From Syntrophomonadaceae bacterium (GTDB lineage Bacteria; Bacillota_D; Dethiobacteria; DTU022), in the NCBI GenBank assembly GCA_003562605.1, contig PWUG01000116.1, positions 1 through 8,913 of the forward strand: a DNA stretch of 8,913 nt, in the 5' to 3' direction. Position numbers and translations under genes: made by a program. The notes beneath the pieces were generated by a model that was not told where the DNA came from, ran no database searches, and saw nothing but the letters and a program-made list of their open reading frames with translations. Within the stretch, counting starts at the first letter, position 1, and each line of letters begins with the position of its first letter. Shown in pieces: positions 1-7,256 of this stretch.

Positions 1-753
1 CCGTTCCAATTTAATGGTAGCACCGCTCGTGGTTTATTCTTTGGAGTTGAGCTGGAGGTTGAACACCCAGACCCTACATGTTGGGAGGATTTAGCGGAGT
101 TTGCGACTGACGATCTTGGGTTTCACTGCGAAGAGGATGGTTCAGTCAGAGGTTTTGAAATTATCTCAAATCCGTTTTCCTGGACATACTATGAGTCAGA
201 CCAAAAAGAACTATTCAATGATTTGTTAACAGCAGCGCAATCTCAAGGTTTTAAGTCTTATGATTCAGGTAACTGTGGAATTCATATACATTTATCTAAA
301 AAGGCTTTCTCAACTCAAAGGTTGCTGAATTTCTTGACTTTTATGTACTCGAACTTAGAATATATCAACTGTATCTCTCAAAGAGATTACACCAATGGTT
401 CATGTTCATGGCATATGAGCAAAGAGTGTAAAGATAGCATTACACCTGAGCGCTTGAAGGTAAAAGCTGAGCGTAAAACTGATAGGGAACGTTATACCGC
501 TGTTAATTTGTCGAACCCTGATACCATAGAAGTAAGGATATTCAGAGGTACACTAAACAAAGAATCATTCTTTAAAAATCTGGAATTTGTTAAGGCATTG
601 TATGAGTTCTGCGGATTTGTTGATCTGACTGAAACCACTTTAAAAGAAAATGCAGTACTCTATTTTCATGATTACATCGAAGCTAACAGCGAGAAGTACA
701 GCAACCTTTACAGCTTTCTAAAAAAGAAGGGTTTTTATTCTCTTAATAATTAA
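1..753 (+). CDS. Amidoligase-family (COOH-NH2 ligase) protein, 5' end outside window
   Basis: The frame is open from the first base, so the start lies upstream; 250 codons are visible. The motifs fit the putative amidoligase family (Pfam Amidoligase_2, glutamine-synthetase/GCS-like fold): GVELEVE at visible residues 15-21, DGSVRGFEIISNP at 46-58, GIHIHLS at 93-99, and a C-terminal block with VNLSN (about 168-172) and TIEVRIFRGTL (about 175-185). The acidic and histidine residues would be expected to hold Mg-ATP, as in related ATP-dependent ligases. Family members are predicted to form amide or peptide bonds; the substrate here is unknown. A class II glutamine amidotransferase follows after 79 bp, which suggests ammonia from glutamine is the amine donor. 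The ending after FYSLNN looks natural. Family call is confident; function is inferred. Confidence 0.8.
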   Translation, partial: PFQFNGSTARGLFFGVELEVEHPDPTCWEDLAEFATDDLGFHCEEDGSVRGFEIISNPFSWTYYESDQKELFNDLLTAAQSQGFKSYDSGNCGIHIHLSKKAFSTQRLLNFLTFMYSNLEYINCISQRDYTNGSCSWHMSKECKDSITPERLKVKAERKTDRERYTAVNLSNPDTIEVRIFRGTLNKESFFKNLEFVKALYEFCGFVDLTETTLKENAVLYFHDYIEANSEKYSNLYSFLKKKGFYSLNN

Positions 754-756
754 TTA

Positions 757-811
757 TACCATGACCAGGACGTCAAGGTCATTAACGACTTTGACGTCAT
801 AATGTCAGGTA
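757..811 (+). promoter_or_regulatory. Long imperfect RNA hairpin before the amidotransferase gene (possible RNase III site)
   Basis: GACGTCAAGGTC (769-780) pairs with GACTTTGACGTC (787-798), a 12-bp stem with one G-U pair and a 6-nt loop (781-786). Below an asymmetric internal loop, TGAC (762-765) pairs with GTCA (804-807), and TACC (757-760) with GGTA (808-811), leaving one bulged A. No U-tract follows, so this is not an intrinsic terminator. The Shine-Dalgarno of the next gene (TAAGGAGT, 818-825) begins 7 nt after the structure. T7 early mRNA is cut by RNase III at intergenic hairpins of this general kind; that role is inferred. Confidence 0.55.
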
Positions 812-832
812 CTACCATAAGGAGTCAATACT

Positions 833-1621
833 ATGTGTATCATAATCTATAAACCGAAAGATAAAGAGTTACCGAGTAAAGAAGTATTAGACACATGCTT
901 CTCAAATAATGCCGATGGTTGTGGGTTGACATATTACGCTAATGGTTATTGGCATACACGCAAGGGCTTTATGACATTCGAAGACTTCTACCATACACTA
1001 AACAGGATGAGAGCTAAAATTGAGAACTTGCCCGTGATTATACACTTTCGAATGTCAACTTGCATAGGTATTGAACCGGAAAAAACTCATCCCTTTCCGA
1101 TAACCAAAAATAGCAAACTATTGAATACGATTACATACAAAGCCAAACAAGTTTTAGCTCATAACGGTATTTTGGGCTCGGGTGATACGGATGAGCGACT
1201 AACAGATACCCAAGTATTTATTAAAACCTTTATTGTGCATGTTAAGGGTTTGTTACACTTGCCGCAAATAACAGACCTTATATCGGATAATTCCCTTGGG
1301 AGTCGAATCATTATAGGGGACGGTAACAAAGTTCGTATGTATGGCTCCTGGACTGAGGACGGCGGCATTTTGTACTCCAACGTAGGGTATAAAGAAAAAA
1401 GTTTAATCTATGATGATTGGGTATGGCATGAAGACGAAGACGAAGACAAGCTCATCAATAGTATAGATGACTCAATTTGTCCCCATTGTTACCTGGAGGA
1501 TAGATTGGTCGAAGTATATCCAACTGAACAAGAATCCCTTGATGGCATTCGACCGGTCGAGTGTCAAAACTGCGGGACAGTATATGACCATAACACTTTA
1601 AATATTGTAGACGGTTTATAA
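833..1621 (+). CDS. Class II glutamine amidotransferase (Ntn-hydrolase) with C-terminal zinc ribbon
   Basis: 262 residues. The protein begins Met-Cys, so after Met removal the Cys becomes the N-terminal nucleophile typical of GAT-II/Ntn hydrolases. Other family marks are HFRMST at residues 71-76 (the Arg that holds glutamine in GlmS-type enzymes), AHNG at 109-112 (oxyanion-hole Asn-Gly) and TDTQ at 124-127 (the Asp that binds the glutamine amine). The expected reaction is hydrolysis of glutamine to glutamate, releasing ammonia. After the GAT domain and an acidic linker (about 196-206) come CPHC (216-219) and CQNC (244-247), a likely zinc ribbon. No synthase domain is fused, so a partner must use the ammonia; the upstream amidoligase is the obvious candidate. 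The start is fixed by TAAGGAGT (818-825) and by the need for Cys2. Confidence 0.85.
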   Translation: MCIIIYKPKDKELPSKEVLDTCFSNNADGCGLTYYANGYWHTRKGFMTFEDFYHTLNRMRAKIENLPVIIHFRMSTCIGIEPEKTHPFPITKNSKLLNTITYKAKQVLAHNGILGSGDTDERLTDTQVFIKTFIVHVKGLLHLPQITDLISDNSLGSRIIIGDGNKVRMYGSWTEDGGILYSNVGYKEKSLIYDDWVWHEDEDEDKLINSIDDSICPHCYLEDRLVEVYPTEQESLDGIRPVECQNCGTVYDHNTLNIVDGL

Positions 1622-1637
1622 GAAAGGATTCCCGACC

Positions 1638-1943
1638 ATGAAATTTAATCTTGAAAATGATGTAGTCTTAAAAAAGATTGAAAAAAGTATCAACGCACCT
1701 TGGGTAATGGTATATGTAAGTCCCTTGGGTAGATCAATTATAATTAAGTTTTCTATGGAGCCGAAAGACAAATGGCAAAATGGGATTTTTGAAAATTCCA
1801 CATATGCCATAATTATAGCAGACAATAAGCAGGTTTTAGAAAAGATATCCGGCTATGGATTACCGAAAATGCGCAAGGGGCGTTATAAAGATGTAAATGA
1901 CCTTATTAATAAAATTAATAAGTTTATAGAACGAGGTAAATAA
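1638..1943 (+). CDS. Small hypothetical protein, third gene of the amidoligase block
   Basis: 101 residues; family not recognised. It starts 16 bp after the amidotransferase stop with an AAAGGA (1623-1628) ribosome-binding site, so the two are probably co-transcribed and co-translated. The sequence reads as an alpha/beta domain: hydrophobic strand-like runs at about 22-28 (WVMVYVS), 33-37 (SIIIK) and 56-60 (YAIII), then a basic C-terminal stretch from about 76 ending in a likely amphipathic helix (about 85-99). There is no signal peptide or membrane segment and no cysteine. It is A+T-rich like the two genes before it. It could be an accessory subunit or substrate of the amidation cassette, or an unrelated early host-takeover protein; the sequence alone does not decide. 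Confidence 0.75.
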   Translation: MKFNLENDVVLKKIEKSINAPWVMVYVSPLGRSIIIKFSMEPKDKWQNGIFENSTYAIIIADNKQVLEKISGYGLPKMRKGRYKDVNDLINKINKFIERGK

Positions 1944-2012
1944 GTTTATAATCATGCCTTTGGGAGTCAGGATTCCAGACGCTTCTTGACTCCCGGTAAC
2001 ATGCTTATAAAC
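1944..2012 (+). promoter_or_regulatory. 69-nt inverted repeat / long hairpin just before the RNA polymerase gene
   Basis: All arms share one centre at 1978. GTTTATAA (1944-1951) pairs with TTATAAAC (2005-2012), CATG (1953-1956) with CATG (2000-2003), and GGGAGTCAGGA (1962-1972) with TCTTGACTCCC (1984-1994, one G-U). An internal loop lies at 1957-1961/1995-1999 and the apical loop at 1973-1983. About 23 pairs form besides two possible G-U pairs in the internal loop. It begins right after the preceding stop and ends 11 nt before the polymerase Shine-Dalgarno GGAGGTG (2024-2030). No U-tract follows. An RNase III processing site or a translational control element for the polymerase is the likely role (inferred). 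Confidence 0.6.
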
Positions 2013-2035
2013 TATAACCTAACGGAGGTGCAACA

Positions 2036-4561
2036 ATGTCATTCAGAAAGCAAATCAACGACACACTTCTTGAGAAACAAACTAAGCTGGAATTACAAGG
2101 ACATCAATTCGGCAGAGATAGGTATCTGTCCCGTGTAGCTGATACCCACAGAGAACAACTTAAAGACAACGCTCAATTGAAACCTGAGGTTGGACTGATT
2201 CAGACCTACCTTCCACTGGTAGCTGAGAGGATTCAAGAGAAGTTTGATAAACCTGGTACGAATCCCAAGGTTGTAATAGACATTCAAAAGAATATCCAAA
2301 TCCTTGAACCGGAACGTTTGGCCTACCTGACCCTCCGGCATCTGGTAAACATTACGGATGACACCGCACTGACCGCCAATATGATTAAACTTGGCAGACA
2401 AGTCCAGGCTGATATTGATTATGCGTGGTTTCAAAAGAAAGCTCCGGGGTATCTTAATAAGATCGAAGAGAAGATCAAAGACAAGCACCTGGGGTATCGG
2501 CATGGGTTTTTAAAGAAGGCCGCTTATAAGGTTGAGATTTATGATGAAGAAGGTAACATCATCATGAAAGGCATACCTTCCCAAAAATGGTCCATCCAGG
2601 AGCAGACCTTAGTGGGAAAATTCTTACTTGGAATTATTCACAAGCACACCACCCTAATCAAGTTAGAAGAACGCACCAAAGTTGTCAGAAATTCCGCTAT
2701 GGTGGGTAATTTCCAGCCGACTGACTTCTTATCCATCAAGATCAACCCAGACGTTCGTAAGATGATTCAAGAAAAACATGATCGGATTGCGGACCTGTCT
2801 CCGGTTGTATTACCGGCTGTTATACCGCCCAAGCCGTGGATTAAAACCAAAGGTGGGTGTTTTCATTCTACCTATGGACAGCTCCAAGCCAAGATGGTCA
2901 GAACTCATAAGGATTTTATCCAGGACTACCTGGCAGAGCAAGAGCTGGACTCCGTTATGACAACCCTTAACCATATCCAAGACGTTCCTTTCAGGATCAA
3001 CACCAATGTCCTGGATGTCATGAAAGAGTCCTATCCTTTAGGCATTGGCAAGCTCCCTGCCCCGGAAAAGGAACTGGTAGAAATAGATGACCGCTGCCCC
3101 ATTGGTGAAATCAGCCCGTTTGAAGGGTATGATAAAGAAAATCCTGAGTTCAAGGCTTGGCAACGCTTGAAGGCAAGGGCATATGACAAGTTCCATAAGG
3201 AGAACAGCAAGCGCACCTCCCTCTTATGGAAGTTCAAGATAGCAGACATGTTCAAGGATGAGCCTGAAATGTACTTCTTCTGGAACATGGATTACCGAGG
3301 ACGGATCTATCCTATGCAGCCTTACATCAACCCTCAGATGGACGACTCCGGAAAAAGCTTAATTGAGTTCGCTCATGGTAAACCAGTCGGCCCGACCGGG
3401 GGCAAGTGGCTTGCCATTCATGGTGCCAACGTCTACGGTCAAGACAAATGTCCTTTGTATGAAAGGGTCCAGTGGGTCAATGAACATGAAGAACAGATCC
3501 TTGACTCCGCTAACAACCCCTTGGATGGATCGAGGTTCTGGACCAAGGCTGACAAACCTTTTCAATTCCTGGCCTTCTGTTTTGAATGGCTTGGATATAA
3601 AGAACAAGGTGAAGCCTTCGTATCCAGACTACCGCTGCATACCGATGGGACATGTTCTGGACTGCAACACTTCAGCGCCCTATTGAGAGATGAGATTGGT
3701 GGGAAGTCTGTCAACCTGATACCCGGCAACACAAAGGCCGATGTTTATCAAGAAGTGGCAGACGTTGTGAATGAAATCTTGATTCAAGATGCTGCCAATG
3801 GTGATGAGTTCGCAAAGGCATGGCTTAAGAGGGGTGTGGATCGTAAGGTTGTGAAAAGAAATGTCATGACCTTCTGTTATGGGGCAACCAAAAGAGGTTT
3901 TGCTGGTCAACTACTGTCCGACACTGACCCGCTACCTGAAGGAGTTGATGAGTTCAAGGCTTGCGTTTATCTTGGCAACAAAAATTGGGAAGCCGTAGAA
4001 AAGGTCCTGGTCAAGGCAGTGGAAGCCATGAACTACCTTCAAAAGCTTGCTCACTTTGTTACAAAGCATGGTCAGGATATAAGATGGACCACTCCGACCG
4101 GGTTCAAGGTTGTTCAGGATTATGTTAAAACTAAATCGAAACGAATTGATACATGGTGGGGAGGTCTCCGTGTTCAACTACAAATCCAAGTTGACACCAA
4201 TAAGAAAGACACCGTTGGTAGCAAGAACGCCATTGCTCCTAATTATATCCATTCCCTGGACGCAAGCCATCTCATGCTGACCACTGACAAATGTTATAAA
4301 GAAGGCATCAATGACCTTTCCTTCGTTCATGATTCCTTTGGTGCCCACGCCTGTAACATGGAAGACTTAAACCGTATCCTCCGGGAGACCTTCATTGAAA
4401 TGTATTCCGGGGATCTTCTGGAAGACTGGACCCAAGAAGTAAGAGCTTCCTTAGATGATTCTTTGCGGGCTGAATTTGATGACCTTGTTATAAAGCACAG
4501 ACCTATCATGGGTGGTTTGGATCTGGATGGCGTCATGGAGTCCAATTACTTTTTCTGCTAA
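2036..4561 (+). CDS. T7-like single-subunit DNA-directed RNA polymerase
   Basis: 841 residues against 883 in T7; homologous along its length. Catalytic residues line up: Asp537 in LPLHTDGTCSG (T7 D537), Lys607 and Tyr615 in VVKRNVMTFCYG (T7 K631, Y639) and Asp766 in SFVHDSFG (T7 D812). WNMDYRGRIYPM matches the T7 YNMDWRGRVY block, and the protein ends in SNYFFC, like the essential FAFA-type terminus. The specificity loop (about 694-722) holds Arg703, Asp705, Arg712 and Gln714, apparent equivalents of T7 R746, N748, R756 and Q758; Asp at the N748 position is the T3 state. The start has GGAGGTG 5 nt upstream. The gene lies between a long hairpin and an intrinsic terminator, so it is probably an early gene read by host polymerase; its product transcribes the downstream operon. 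Confidence 0.98.
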   Translation: MSFRKQINDTLLEKQTKLELQGHQFGRDRYLSRVADTHREQLKDNAQLKPEVGLIQTYLPLVAERIQEKFDKPGTNPKVVIDIQKNIQILEPERLAYLTLRHLVNITDDTALTANMIKLGRQVQADIDYAWFQKKAPGYLNKIEEKIKDKHLGYRHGFLKKAAYKVEIYDEEGNIIMKGIPSQKWSIQEQTLVGKFLLGIIHKHTTLIKLEERTKVVRNSAMVGNFQPTDFLSIKINPDVRKMIQEKHDRIADLSPVVLPAVIPPKPWIKTKGGCFHSTYGQLQAKMVRTHKDFIQDYLAEQELDSVMTTLNHIQDVPFRINTNVLDVMKESYPLGIGKLPAPEKELVEIDDRCPIGEISPFEGYDKENPEFKAWQRLKARAYDKFHKENSKRTSLLWKFKIADMFKDEPEMYFFWNMDYRGRIYPMQPYINPQMDDSGKSLIEFAHGKPVGPTGGKWLAIHGANVYGQDKCPLYERVQWVNEHEEQILDSANNPLDGSRFWTKADKPFQFLAFCFEWLGYKEQGEAFVSRLPLHTDGTCSGLQHFSALLRDEIGGKSVNLIPGNTKADVYQEVADVVNEILIQDAANGDEFAKAWLKRGVDRKVVKRNVMTFCYGATKRGFAGQLLSDTDPLPEGVDEFKACVYLGNKNWEAVEKVLVKAVEAMNYLQKLAHFVTKHGQDIRWTTPTGFKVVQDYVKTKSKRIDTWWGGLRVQLQIQVDTNKKDTVGSKNAIAPNYIHSLDASHLMLTTDKCYKEGINDLSFVHDSFGAHACNMEDLNRILRETFIEMYSGDLLEDWTQEVRASLDDSLRAEFDDLVIKHRPIMGGLDLDGVMESNYFFC

Positions 4562-4582
4562 CCTAAACTTTAAATCTTTTTA

Positions 4583-4622
4583 GCCGGAAACGCTTTGTTC
4601 ATCAAGCTTTCCGGCTTTTTTT
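4583..4622 (+). terminator. Intrinsic terminator after the RNA polymerase gene
   Basis: GCCGGAAA (4583-4590) pairs with TTTCCGGC (4608-4615). The stem continues past one bulged C with GCTT (4592-4595) and AAGC (4604-4607), leaving an 8-nt loop. Seven T residues follow (4616-4622). It starts 21 nt after the polymerase stop codon and lies immediately before the phage promoter, so it should end host-polymerase early transcripts. T7 likewise has an early terminator, although there it lies further downstream, after gene 1.3. Confidence 0.92.
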
Positions 4623-4626
4623 GTGG

Positions 4627-4649
4627 ACAGCCCCCTCACTATAGAAGAA
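4627..4649 (+). promoter_or_regulatory. T3/T7-type phage RNA polymerase promoter
   Basis: CCCTCACTATAG at 4633-4644 matches T7 from -9 to +1 (CTCACTATAG) and T3 from -11 to -3 (CCCTCACTA). The predicted start is G4644. Upstream of -12 it resembles neither phage. The position is right for the first phage-polymerase promoter, 4 nt after the terminator U-tract and 65 bp before the SSB start codon. No second copy was seen in the window by eye. Confidence 0.88.
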
Positions 4650-4708: not shown

Positions 4709-5347
4709 ATGTCAAAGAAGAAGAAAACATTTGTTACACCTGTCACTGAATGTCGGTATCCATTCCTGGATAAACCTGACACCCAGTTCGACAAGGATGG
4801 AGTCTATCGGATTCAGTTGGTATTCGAGAAAGATGATGACTTTATCGAGAAAGTTAAGAAGGCTTCTCTTCGGGAGTTTGAGAAAGCTAAAGAATCCATG
4901 AAACCTAAAGATGCTGCAACCTTAAAGTACCACTGTCCAGCCAAACCAATCATTAATGATGATGGAGATGACACAGGTCAGGTGGAGTTAAGCTTTAAAT
5001 CCAAAGCATCCTTCACGGATCATAAGACAGGTGAGAGACGAGCGATCAAGGTACCTGTCTTCGATGCCAAGGGTAAACCATTGAAGGTTATCCCCAGGAT
5101 CGGTAATGGATCGAAAGTCAGCATCGCCTTTAATGTAGCACCCCACGTGGTCACAGGTACATTCTATTACACCACATATTTGAACGCTGTTCAGATTGTT
5201 GAGTTGTTAGAGTTCAACCCGGATGGAACCAGTTACGGTTTCGGTAAACACACCGAAGGTTTTGATGTTAATGACATCGAAGAAAAAGAGCCTGAGTTTG
5301 ATAAAGAGCCAGGGTCCCACGAAGACGACGACGACTCTCCATTCTAA
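4709..5347 (+). CDS. Single-stranded DNA-binding protein, T7 gp2.5-like
   Basis: 212 residues (T7 gp2.5 has 232). A basic N-terminus (SKKKK) leads into an OB-fold-like core: a strand-rich region at about 29-40, another at about 91-102, and GSKVSIAFNV to YLNAVQIVEL at about 134-166, the pattern seen near the end of the gp2.5 core. The tail from about 186 is strongly acidic and ends EDDDDSPF. In T7 gp2.5 the acidic tail and terminal Phe contact the polymerase and the primase-helicase and compete with DNA. It is the first gene after the phage promoter, has AAAGGAGA 8 nt before ATG, and overlaps the endonuclease start by 1 nt (TAATG). The role is coating single strands and organising replication and recombination. 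Order and tail make the call firm despite low sequence similarity to T7. Confidence 0.9.
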   Translation: MSKKKKTFVTPVTECRYPFLDKPDTQFDKDGVYRIQLVFEKDDDFIEKVKKASLREFEKAKESMKPKDAATLKYHCPAKPIINDDGDDTGQVELSFKSKASFTDHKTGERRAIKVPVFDAKGKPLKVIPRIGNGSKVSIAFNVAPHVVTGTFYYTTYLNAVQIVELLEFNPDGTSYGFGKHTEGFDVNDIEEKEPEFDKEPGSHEDDDDSPF

Positions 5348-5781
5348 TGTATAAGAACAACCACGGCGTTGCCAACGGATATAGATCTGGACTTGAGAAG
5401 GTCATTATGGAATACCTCAATAAGAGGGGTGTTCCATATTCATATGAATCTCATCGAATCCCCTTTGTTGAACCAGCAAAACGCCGCACATACACACCAG
5501 ACTTTTTCCTTCCGAACGGAATCGTCATTGAGTCTAAGGGGAGGTTTCTATCGAAGGATAGGCAGAAACACATCCTTATTAAACAGCAGTATCCTGACTT
5601 GGAGCTACGCTTCGTGTTCTCCAATGCTAACTCACCCATCTATAAGGGTTCAAAGACTTCTCTATCCAAATGGGCTGAGAAGTATGGATTCGAGTGGGCT
5701 GATAAGATGATTCCGGATACCTGGATCAAGGAGCCTCCAAACCTTAAATGGATCAAAGCTTTAGAGAGGTTTAAAATATGA
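5347..5781 (+). CDS. Endonuclease I / Holliday-junction resolvase, T7 gp3-like
   Basis: 144 residues (T7 149). Matches T7 endonuclease I nearly end to end: RSGLEK near the N-terminus, YTPDFFLPNG (49-58), ESKG (62-65), the FVFSNA block, YKGSKTS and the C-terminal WIKEP. The catalytic set Glu17, Asp52, Glu62, Lys64 corresponds to T7 E20, D55, E65, K67 with a constant offset of three, so it is expected to be active. The enzyme resolves branched DNA before packaging and, in T7, helps degrade host DNA. There is no Shine-Dalgarno; the ATG shares its A with the SSB stop (TAATG), so it is probably translated by coupling. The next Met (residue 21) would lose Glu17, which supports this start. It overlaps the helicase start by 4 nt. 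Confidence 0.97.
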   Translation: MYKNNHGVANGYRSGLEKVIMEYLNKRGVPYSYESHRIPFVEPAKRRTYTPDFFLPNGIVIESKGRFLSKDRQKHILIKQQYPDLELRFVFSNANSPIYKGSKTSLSKWAEKYGFEWADKMIPDTWIKEPPNLKWIKALERFKI

Positions 5782-7256
5782 CGAGACTGATCGAGGGGGC
5801 TTTGGCCCCCTTGAAATCAAAAAGAATAAGAGTTGATACATGCAAGCTGTTCGGGTTTAAGTGTGCCAAACTTGATACTGATAACCATCTCTATATAGCA
5901 GAGTACCGAGATGTTTATGGTCAAGTGCAGTGCCAAAGGATCACCAAAATTGAACAACAGTTCACATATTGGAATGGCCCTTGGACAGGTGCTCAACTAT
6001 TTGGACAACATCACTGCCAGGAACGCTCAAAGAGGCTTGTCATAGCCAAGAATGAGATAGATGCCATGACCATATCCCAGGCATTCAACAACAGTTGGCC
6101 CGTGGTTGCGATACCAGGGTATGAGAACGCCTTGCCTATGTTAAAACGTAATCTGGAATGGTTGAACTCTCATCATGAAATAGTCCTGGCCTTCGACTCA
6201 ACCGATGCAGGACGTCAAGCTGTGGATGATGTGGGTTCTTTATTCCCACCCGGTAAAGTCAAGATCATGAGATACAAGGAGTTCCATGATGCCTCCGAGA
6301 TGCTTATGGAAAATGCGGGGGATACCATCGCACAGTGTGTCTTTCAAGCTAAAGAGTTCAGACCTGATGGTATTGTCATGGGTTCGGAGTTATGGGACGA
6401 CATCATTGCCCCACCACCTGCAGGCTTGGAGATACCTTATCCGGATCTTAACCGAAGACTGAAGGGACTGAGACAAGGTAGGATCTATCTACTGACAGCC
6501 GGGTCCGGTTTAGGCAAGTCCACCCTGGCCCATGAGTTAGGCTATCACATGTTAACCGAGCACAACCAAAAGATCGGGATCTTTGCTTTAGAAGAACCAC
6601 GTAAGAGATTGGCTGAACGTTATATAAGCTTTGCCCTCAACCGTCCTATCCATCTGGACCGGACAGGCGTGACTGATGAAGAGCTACGCCAAGCCTATGA
6701 CAGGACCATCAATAATGACAACTTTGCCCTATATGACCACCGAGGGTCAAAGGATATTGATTCTATTTTAGCCAAGGTCCGCTTCATGGCAGTAGGATTA
6801 AGTAGACAATGGATCATCTTCGACCATATAAGCATTGTGGTCAGTGGTCTTGACGAGATTGGAGAGTCCGAGCGTAAGACGATTGACAGGCTTATGACTG
6901 GCTTGTCCTCTATGGTTGAGGAACTGAACATAGGGTTCATTGCAGTGGTCCACCTGAAACGGAAAGGAGATAAAGGGAAGAGTTACAACGAGGGGAAAGC
7001 CGTATCCTTATCAGATTTAAGAGGGTCCGGCGGTTTGGAGCAACTGTCCCATGCTGTCGTTTCGATGGAACGTAATCAACAAGACGAAGAGTTAAAGAAC
7101 TACTCCAAGTTAAGACTTCTGAAGGACAGAGACGCAGGGGATACAGGCGAGTCTGACATTCTTCAATACCATACGGATACCGGACGGCTGACAGCCTGCC
7201 AGATCAACCCCTTTGAGCAGCAGAACTTTCAACAATACGAAGGAGAAGAATTTTAA
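5778..7256 (+). CDS. gp4-like replicative helicase with degenerate primase (TOPRIM) domain and no zinc domain
   Basis: 492 residues, close to the short T7 form gp4B (503), not gp4A (566). The N-terminal part (about 1-195) aligns with the T7 primase domain, but TEGEID is AKNEID here (Lys91 where T7 has Glu157) and FDMDEAGR is FDSTDAGR (Thr142 where T7 has Asp209). Glu93, Asp95, Asp140 and Asp171 remain. No zinc-binding CxxC domain precedes it, and endonuclease I occupies the upstream DNA. The RecA-like helicase part is intact: Walker A GSGLGKST (242-249), Glu272-Glu273, Walker B IIFDHISIVV with Asp349, VVHLK with His392, DLRGSG and Arg451 as probable arginine finger. It ends EGEEF; T7 gp4 also ends in an acidic, Phe-terminated tail that binds the polymerase. 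A 5'-3' ring helicase is certain; priming activity is doubtful. AGAGGT (5765-5770) and an ATGA overlap set the start. Confidence 0.95.
   Translation: MTRLIEGALAPLKSKRIRVDTCKLFGFKCAKLDTDNHLYIAEYRDVYGQVQCQRITKIEQQFTYWNGPWTGAQLFGQHHCQERSKRLVIAKNEIDAMTISQAFNNSWPVVAIPGYENALPMLKRNLEWLNSHHEIVLAFDSTDAGRQAVDDVGSLFPPGKVKIMRYKEFHDASEMLMENAGDTIAQCVFQAKEFRPDGIVMGSELWDDIIAPPPAGLEIPYPDLNRRLKGLRQGRIYLLTAGSGLGKSTLAHELGYHMLTEHNQKIGIFALEEPRKRLAERYISFALNRPIHLDRTGVTDEELRQAYDRTINNDNFALYDHRGSKDIDSILAKVRFMAVGLSRQWIIFDHISIVVSGLDEIGESERKTIDRLMTGLSSMVEELNIGFIAVVHLKRKGDKGKSYNEGKAVSLSDLRGSGGLEQLSHAVVSMERNQQDEELKNYSKLRLLKDRDAGDTGESDILQYHTDTGRLTACQINPFEQQNFQQYEGEEF

What the first reader, a model, noticed from the sequence alone, without database searches (positions are those of the whole stretch)
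1..1943. Amidoligase plus class II amidotransferase cassette in the early region of a T7-like phage
Seen: an amidoligase-family protein, a Cys2 GAT-II and a 101-aa unknown in a row, directly before the RNA polymerase gene. Known: comparative genomics has predicted that stand-alone COOH-NH2 ligases work with GAT-II proteins to make amide or peptide bonds, including in phages; the substrates are mostly unknown. Inference: the pair amidates a host or phage target (for example a peptide, cell-wall precursor, protein side chain or nucleotide precursor) early in infection. The early position suggests host takeover or defence evasion.
Basis: partly seen in the sequence, partly recalled or inferred. 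Interest (0 to 1): 0.78.

Follow-up and report, generated by a model that had tools for sequence, protein, structure and literature searches.

The report
Phage amidoligase–amidotransferase gene pair
A T7-like virus of bacteria carries, just before its RNA polymerase gene, two enzymes that nearly always sit side by side in related loci and probably take nitrogen from glutamine to cap an acid group on some still unknown target; such pairs were already known in other phages, but what they modify is not known.

Summary
Bases 1-753 encode the catalytic part of an Amidoligase_2 protein, cut at its 5' end by the contig edge; its predicted structure (pLDDT 88.7) matches glutamine-synthetase/YbdK-fold ligases. 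Bases 833-1621 encode a Cys2 class II glutamine amidotransferase: below the Pfam cut-off, but with the class II active-site residues conserved and a structural match to EgtC, GlmS and PurF. A 101-aa unknown and a T7-like RNA polymerase follow.

The pairing is close to obligatory. Of 78 viral loci found by the ligase alone, 77 carry the amidotransferase, 75 of them downstream (median gap 4 bp); the profile hit nothing else in those 911 kb. Starting from the amidotransferase, 44 of 53 loci carry the ligase (36 strong, 8 weak matches). No third gene recurs; the 101-aa gene is not part of the module.

Most likely it is a two-subunit, glutamine-dependent enzyme that amidates a carboxylate. The target is unknown: Cys-rich, zinc-finger-like arrays in most relatives' ligases hint at a macromolecule; cell-wall precursors are the published guess. 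Pairs in other phages and in larger phiEco32/LUZ24 cassettes are in print. This is a new, divergent member of a known kind.

The parts
1..753 (+). Amidoligase_2 (glutamine-synthetase-like COOH-NH2 ligase), catalytic domain; 5' end cut by the contig edge
   Evidence: Pfam PF12224 E 2.6e-10; AlphaFold2 pLDDT 88.7, pTM 0.90; PDB matches YbdK, GS, glutamate-cysteine ligase, PafA
43..57 (+). GxELE motif (residues 15-19) of the ligase
   Evidence: G15, E17 and E19 each in 56 of 57 sequences
136..159 (+). D46 to E53 (DGS...E) motif of the ligase
   Evidence: D46 and E53 in 57 of 57
274..291 (+). CGxHxH motif (residues 92-97) of the ligase
   Evidence: C92, G93, H95, H97 in 57 of 57
529..555 (+). ExRxFRGTL motif (residues 177-185) of the ligase
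   Evidence: E177, R179, F181, G183, L185 in 57 of 57
754..832 (+). Spacer with a strong RNA hairpin (stem 769-780 / 787-798) and a ribosome-binding-site-like AAGGAG before the amidotransferase gene
   Evidence: MFE -28.2 kcal/mol, z -5.0, 0 of 200 shuffles as good; sequence
833..1621 (+). Class II (Ntn-hydrolase) glutamine amidotransferase, 262 aa, predicted catalytic Cys2
   Evidence: Family invariants; profile to GFAT-1 and PurF; structure matches EgtC, GlmS, PurF
836..838 (+). Codon of the predicted nucleophile Cys2
   Evidence: C2 in 38 of 38
1043..1207 (+). Predicted glutamine-binding and oxyanion motifs H71-R73, T76, H86-P87, H110-N111-G112, D125
   Evidence: Conserved; aligned with human GFAT-1 HTRWATHG / HP / HNGI / DT
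1478..1573 (+). C-terminal zinc-ribbon-like CPHC...CQNC of the amidotransferase (C216, C219, C244, C247)
   Evidence: Sequence; the four Cys are invariant in the 6 sequences of A4; lower-confidence part of the model
1638..1943 (+). 101-aa protein of unknown function (phrog_3308); not part of the conserved module
   Evidence: no relative in the other 175 sources
1944..2035 (+). Spacer with a strong RNA hairpin before the polymerase gene
   Evidence: MFE -34.2 kcal/mol, z -6.0, 0 of 200 shuffles as good; inverted repeat I1
2036..4561 (+). T7-like single-subunit RNA polymerase
   Evidence: RNA_pol E 1.9e-122; 34.9% identity to LUZ100
4582..4622 (+). Rho-independent-terminator-like hairpin plus T run after the polymerase gene (my reading; the simple terminator scan does not list it)
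   Evidence: z -4.1, 0 of 200 shuffles as good
4635..4644 (+). CTCACTATAG, exact match to the recalled T7 promoter core, the only exact one in the window

Best explanation
The two genes encode the two halves of a glutamine-dependent amide-forming enzyme. The class II amidotransferase uses Cys2 to split glutamine and release ammonia. The glutamine-synthetase-like amidoligase uses ATP to activate a carboxylate on its substrate, probably as an acyl phosphate, and joins the ammonia to it. They are probably made together, early in infection. My best guess at the target is a carboxylate on a protein or peptide, because most relatives' ligases carry an N-terminal array of CxxC zinc-finger-like modules and about half of the amidotransferases have CxxC pairs near the C-terminus, which suits docking to a macromolecule more than to a small metabolite. 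Shown: both folds (by prediction), the conserved catalytic residues, the near-obligatory adjacency, the lack of a recurrent third gene. Inferred: ammonia transfer between the subunits, the amidation itself, early expression. Guessed: the target and the benefit to the phage. The confidence is for the chemistry; for a protein or peptide target I would say about 0.3. The cell-wall rival shares this chemistry, so the odds overlap.
Against: No activity, substrate or ammonia channel has been tested. The window's own ligase N-terminus, where the zinc fingers would be, is off the contig. EgtC, the top structural match of the amidotransferase, is (recalled) a gamma-glutamyl hydrolase and not an ammonia donor. 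Ligase and amidotransferase distances across 71 loci correlate only modestly (Mantel r 0.33; largest of 2000 permutations 0.24), and the window's 7 nearest ligases and 7 nearest amidotransferases share only one locus (L020), which suggests, weakly, that partners have been exchanged. In 9 of 53 amidotransferase-first loci no ligase passed the profile, and 8 of the 44 positives are weak (E 2e-10 to 5e-4); of the 9, L162 and L163 have an upstream ORF with an FGIELE motif. 30 of 71 amidotransferases have no CxxC in the C-terminal part. The ligase profile found no ligase in the PDB by sequence at E 1; the fold rests on the predicted structure.
Confidence: 0.6

Rival explanations
1. Same chemistry, but the target is the cell wall: the pair amidates a carboxylate of a peptidoglycan stem peptide or precursor, to change the surface against superinfection or to alter lysis, as proposed for the larger phiEco32/LUZ24 cassettes.
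For: Published proposal for phages with this gene combination, seen as passages in PMC10580990, PMC5498523, PMC11318856 and PMC11945000. In LUZ24 and phiEco32 an annotated amidoligase is followed directly by an annotated amidotransferase.
Against: The other cassette genes, tested with LUZ24 and phiEco32 queries, are almost absent from the 176 sources searched: ATP-grasp only in L047, COOH-NH2 ligase in L047 and L166, gamma-glutamyl cyclotransferase in L078 (single-sequence searches at E 1e-4, so distant ones may be missed). The LUZ24 and phiEco32 ligases match the window-family profile weakly (E 1.3e-4 and 2.2e-10), the phiEco32 amidotransferase at 0.0012, the LUZ24 one not at all. The passages I saw cite no test of the proposal.
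Confidence: 0.25
2. EgtA/EgtC-like division of labour: the ligase adds a gamma-glutamyl or other aminoacyl group to a substrate and the Ntn-hydrolase partner removes a gamma-glutamyl group instead of donating ammonia, forming a make-and-trim pair.
Confidence: 0.15
3. Nucleotide or DNA-base modification: the pair amidates a carboxylated base such as 7-carboxy-7-deazaguanine.
For: L166, an amidotransferase-first locus, carries a QueE-like gene (TIGR03963 E 8e-35, 120.5 bits against an equivalog cut-off of 260.1) and a COOH-NH2-ligase relative.
Against: L166 has no match to the window-type ligase. With the L166 protein as query no other QueE relative was found in the 176 sources. Of 187 listed neighbour ORFs from 75 non-redundant loci, 150 were scanned and no family recurs; the commonest Pfam family, PDDEXK_1, is in 4 of 150.
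Confidence: 0.05
4. The pair is not an enzyme for this phage's own infection cycle but a selfish or defence-like cargo module moved between mobile elements.
For: Several copies in one bacterial genome: Butyricicoccus pullicaecorum DSM 23266 has the ligase on five contigs. Presence in unrelated phages and on a contig titled Lokiarchaeota (L090). Possible partner exchange.
Against: No PADLOC model matches the 5 proteins tried at E 0.01; in the window it sits directly before the phage polymerase gene, not in an obvious cargo site; copies in bacterial contigs may simply be prophages (not examined).
Confidence: 0.1

Closest known systems
Mycobacteriophage Marvin gp105-gp106
   Same: Amidoligase followed by class II amidotransferase, same strand, adjacent; both match the profiles
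   Different: 26.9% identity in the ligase; a Marvinvirus with a 65-kb genome; no match to the window polymerase in the stretch held
Methylophilales phages MEP401 gp05-gp06 and MEP402 gp06-gp07
   Same: Two-gene pair upstream of the primase, helicase and DNA polymerase genes; amidoligase plus GATase reported in print for these phages
   Different: Zobellviridae; ligase 28-33% and amidotransferase 32% identical; the two genes overlap by 10 bases where the window has a 79-nt spacer
Podoviridae sp. ctgrD200 (MW202733)
   Same: The only other phage found here with both the pair and a match to the window's T7-like polymerase; ligase, amidotransferase, small ORFs, then polymerase
   Different: Ligase 27.7%, amidotransferase 29.6% identical; integrase gene upstream; ten small annotated ORFs between the pair and the polymerase
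phiEco32 / LUZ24 putative peptidoglycan-modification cassette
   Same: Annotated amidoligase with an annotated amidotransferase directly downstream
   Different: Adds COOH-NH2 ligase, RimK-like ATP-grasp and gamma-glutamyl cyclotransferase; the two ligases start about 30 residues before the GxELE-like motif, so have no long N-terminal Cys-rich region; only distant similarity

Membership tests
Amidoligase_2 (PF12224) | Profile score above the curated cut-off | tested here: met
   41 bits against 22
Amidoligase_2 (PF12224) | Glutamine-synthetase-like ligase fold with conserved acidic/His/Arg motifs | tested here: met
   Predicted fold; motifs:
Amidoligase_2 (PF12224) | ATP-dependent carboxylate-amine ligation | not testable with these tools
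   Needs biochemistry
Class II glutamine amidotransferase (GATase_4/6/7, Gn_AT_II) | Cys directly after the initiator Met | tested here: met
   C2 in 38 of 38 of A6
Class II glutamine amidotransferase (GATase_4/6/7, Gn_AT_II) | Pfam profile above cut-off | tested here: not met
   GATase_4 12.9 bits against 23; of the 22 members of A1, 8 match GATase_4 and 2 GATase_6 at E 0.01, the window none. I therefore call it a divergent class II amidotransferase and not a member of a named Pfam family
Class II glutamine amidotransferase (GATase_4/6/7, Gn_AT_II) | Ntn-hydrolase fold with HNG, Arg, His and Asp of the glutamine site | tested here: met
Class II glutamine amidotransferase (GATase_4/6/7, Gn_AT_II) | Glutaminase activity and ammonia transfer to a synthase | not testable with these tools
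   Needs biochemistry; a complex was not modelled
phiEco32/LUZ24-type peptidoglycan-modification cassette | Amidoligase plus amidotransferase | tested here: met
phiEco32/LUZ24-type peptidoglycan-modification cassette | Second COOH-NH2 ligase, ATP-grasp ligase and gamma-glutamyl cyclotransferase alongside | tested here: not met
   No relative among the window's ORFs and none named in the scans of 10 window proteins; the DNA upstream of base 1 is not available
T7-like (Autographiviridae-type) phage | Single-subunit RNA polymerase followed by SSB, endonuclease I, primase/helicase | tested here: met
   no capsid or terminase gene was identified on this contig

The most novel reading that the evidence does not exclude
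A two-gene, self-sufficient protein-modification system of phages: a zinc-finger-armed ligase picks a particular host protein (for example a transcription or defence protein) and its paired amidotransferase feeds it ammonia, so that acidic residues or a C-terminus are turned into amides early in infection. That would be a host-takeover modification by enzymatic amidation, found in many unrelated phages, with several ligases sharing one amidotransferase in some loci to hit several targets.
Probability: 0.22. Interest if true: 0.8.

Novelty: new member of a known kind. Interest (0 to 1): 0.42.

Why it matters
Amidoligase plus amidotransferase pairs are listed in phage genomes without a known substrate. 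The counts made here (77 of 78 ligase-first viral loci, the amidotransferase profile hitting nowhere else in their 911 kb, no recurrent third gene) say that the pair alone is the functional unit, so two genes may suffice for a biochemical test. If the target is a host protein it would be an unfamiliar phage weapon; if it is the cell wall it would settle the published superinfection proposal.

Tried and rejected
Rejected: (1) that the 101-aa gene belongs to the module: no relative in the other 175 sources. (2) That a third gene completes the module: the next most frequent family around the pair is in 27 of 89 sources (its representative L029 8029-9369 matches the window primase/helicase, so it is a replicative-helicase-like gene). 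Pfam and PHROGs scans of neighbour ORFs (at most one upstream and two downstream, + strand) from 75 non-redundant loci show nothing recurrent: 187 ORFs were listed, 150 scanned; the 37 left out include ligase or amidotransferase paralogues and replication genes, the rest were dropped only to keep to 150. (3) A known defence system: no PADLOC match at E 0.01 for 5 proteins. (4) Known RNA families: none at gathering threshold. (5) Deazaguanine modification as the common role: QueE only in L166.

Led nowhere: scans of viral contigs with the window ligase alone and the window polymerase alone found no relative; the window amidotransferase alone found one locus, L010. Sigma-70 scans gave no excess over shuffles: 19 found, 18.2 expected; 4 terminator-like sites against 7.7 expected. 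The ligase profile finds LIM proteins but no ligase in the PDB by sequence. NCBIfam gives nothing for the three window proteins.

Against my reading, told plainly: ligase and amidotransferase distances agree only modestly and partners may have been swapped; 12 of 34 ligase-first bacterial/archaeal loci did not match the amidotransferase profile, of which 10 have a motif-bearing class II ORF directly downstream and 2 (L093, L113) have none; 9 of 53 amidotransferase-first loci had no ligase by profile and 8 more only weakly; phage AR1086-1 (L004), Microcoleus phage (L009) and L082 have the ligase without the amidotransferase in the stretch held. Six plasmid records with a ligase match and most of the 25 phage records were not looked at for the partner. 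The amidotransferase profile A1 was seeded with 22 proteins, 5 of them from phage records already seen to carry the pair, so a slight circularity exists for those records, not for the 78 viral-contig loci. The 78 loci come from the best 80 of 231 confirmed stretches and many are related: the 88 amidotransferase ORFs fall into 50 clusters at 70% and 36 at 50% identity.

Full report
What is there. The window is a whole 8913-base contig (P0001). On the + strand it carries, in order: the 3' part of an amidoligase gene (1-753), a class II amidotransferase gene (833-1621), a 101-aa ORF (1638-1943), a T7-like RNA polymerase (2036-4561), a gp2.5-like SSB (4709-5347), endonuclease I (5347-5781), primase/helicase (5778-7256) and smaller ORFs. 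This is T7-like gene order. The top-ranked polymerase match is 34.9% identical (LUZ100), the top-ranked primase match 44.7% (Desulfovibrio phage ProddE), and every matched record is under 60% for polymerase, endonuclease I and primase, so no close named relative was found. Each of the three genes after the ligase has a purine-rich, ribosome-binding-site-like stretch before its ATG (sequence).

Pairing. Ligase-first: a scan of viral contigs with a ligase alignment gave 78 loci (best 80 of 231 confirmed). 77 of 78 contain an amidotransferase ORF by profile at E 1e-3, 75 in the order ligase then amidotransferase and 2 reversed, 76 within 200 bp, median gap 4 bp. In the 910,946 bp of these loci the profile hit 79 ORFs and all 79 lie within 500 bp of a ligase, so the profile is not promiscuous and chance cannot give this. 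Amidotransferase-first: 44 of 53 loci have a ligase by profile, 36 with E below 1e-40 and 8 with E between 2e-10 and 5e-4; 39 are within 200 bp. In tblastn of named phages, all 5 records matching the window amidotransferase carry an amidoligase upstream within about 1.1 kb. Bacterial and archaeal species genomes: 34 ligase-first loci, 22 with the amidotransferase by profile and 10 more with a motif-bearing class II ORF directly downstream, 2 without.

Module size. No third family is common: after ligase and amidotransferase the next is a replicative-helicase-like family in 27 of 89 sources. Pfam and PHROGs scans of 150 of 187 listed neighbour ORFs found no family in more than 4. Relatives of the ATP-grasp, COOH-NH2 ligase and gamma-glutamyl cyclotransferase of the LUZ24/phiEco32 cassettes turn up in only 1, 2 and 1 of 176 sources. 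So the pair looks like a minimal unit. Some loci hold two or three ligases (L028, L052, L060, L077, L078, L083 of 78; L105, L111 of 34; L144, L145, L149, L153 of 53), several of them with one amidotransferase, which fits one ammonia source serving several ligases.

Position and expression. The only exact match to the T7 promoter core (recalled) in the window is at 4635-4644, just after a terminator-like hairpin that follows the polymerase gene; counted with up to two mismatches, 6 matches equal chance (6.4 expected). This fits, but does not prove, transcription of the pair by the host polymerase before the phage polymerase takes over. The spacers 754-832 and 1944-2035 each hold a strong hairpin without a T run (z -5.0 and -6.0); by analogy with T7 early mRNA (recalled) they could be processing sites. 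The T7-like record MW202733 carries the pair between an integrase gene and the polymerase gene. Of the 25 phage records matching the window ligase it is the only one that also appears among the 30 listed (of 2598) polymerase matches, so the pair seems rare in T7-like phages.

How it most likely works. The parts are those of a two-subunit glutamine-dependent amidating enzyme. Predicted folds, residues and pairing are shown; ammonia transfer and amidation are inferred; the target is a guess. The cysteine-rich N-terminal regions of the relatives make a macromolecular target plausible. The published guesses are the cell wall and, for Marvin, secondary metabolites and phage-host interaction: PMC10580990 (passages) gives the first for phiEco32, citing Iyer et al. 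2009, and the second for Marvin; PMC5498523 (passages) describes a peptidoglycan modification cassette; PMC11945000 (passages) and PMC11318856 (passages) follow the cell-wall reading. Iyer et al. 2009 and the Marvin paper are not held and I cite them only through PMC10580990. An EgtA/EgtC-like make-and-trim pair is a serious rival because EgtC is the top structural match.

Novelty. Amidoligase plus GATase genes are in print for MEP401, MEP402 and over 30 metagenomic relatives and, by that paper's citation, Marvin, so this is a new and divergent member of a known kind. I found no paper in the held library that tests the function (searches: seen as listings and passages), but the library lacks most subscription papers.

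Against the first version I separated strong from weak ligase matches in the amidotransferase-first set, replaced 'directly downstream' by 'downstream' for the 75, gave the number of ligases without the searched motif, softened the partner-exchange claim (L020 is in both lists), and stated what was not examined.

Noticed in passing
L098, L101, L102, L106, L108: Butyricicoccus pullicaecorum DSM 23266 carries the ligase on five different contigs, each followed by a class II amidotransferase ORF (by motif, not by profile); B. faecihominis has two copies (L096, L097) and Butyricicoccus sp. Marseille-Q5471 three (L104, L109, L121). Polylysogeny or a multicopy element.
   Followed up: no
L153 6850-16786; also L144, L145, L149, L052, L060, L077, L083: Several ligases in one locus: L153 has three ligase-amidotransferase pairs within 10 kb; others have two ligases and one amidotransferase.
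   Followed up: partly
L166 4202-8621: An amidotransferase-first locus with a QueE-like gene and a COOH-NH2-ligase relative upstream, a possible deazaguanine amidation variant.
   Followed up: partly
L090 5917-8019: Pair on a contig titled Candidatus Lokiarchaeota; it could be an archaeal virus or a binning error.
   Followed up: no
window 754-832 and 1944-2035: Two strong hairpins without T runs flank the amidotransferase/101-aa genes, possibly RNA processing sites as in T7 early mRNA (recalled).
   Followed up: partly
window 1638-1943: 101-aa protein of phrog_3308; 45 of the 46 phage records matching it are Synechococcus phages; function unknown.
   Followed up: no
window 833-1621 and 1-753: The window's 7 nearest ligases and 7 nearest amidotransferases in the 71-locus set share only L020, a weak sign of partner exchange.
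   Followed up: partly
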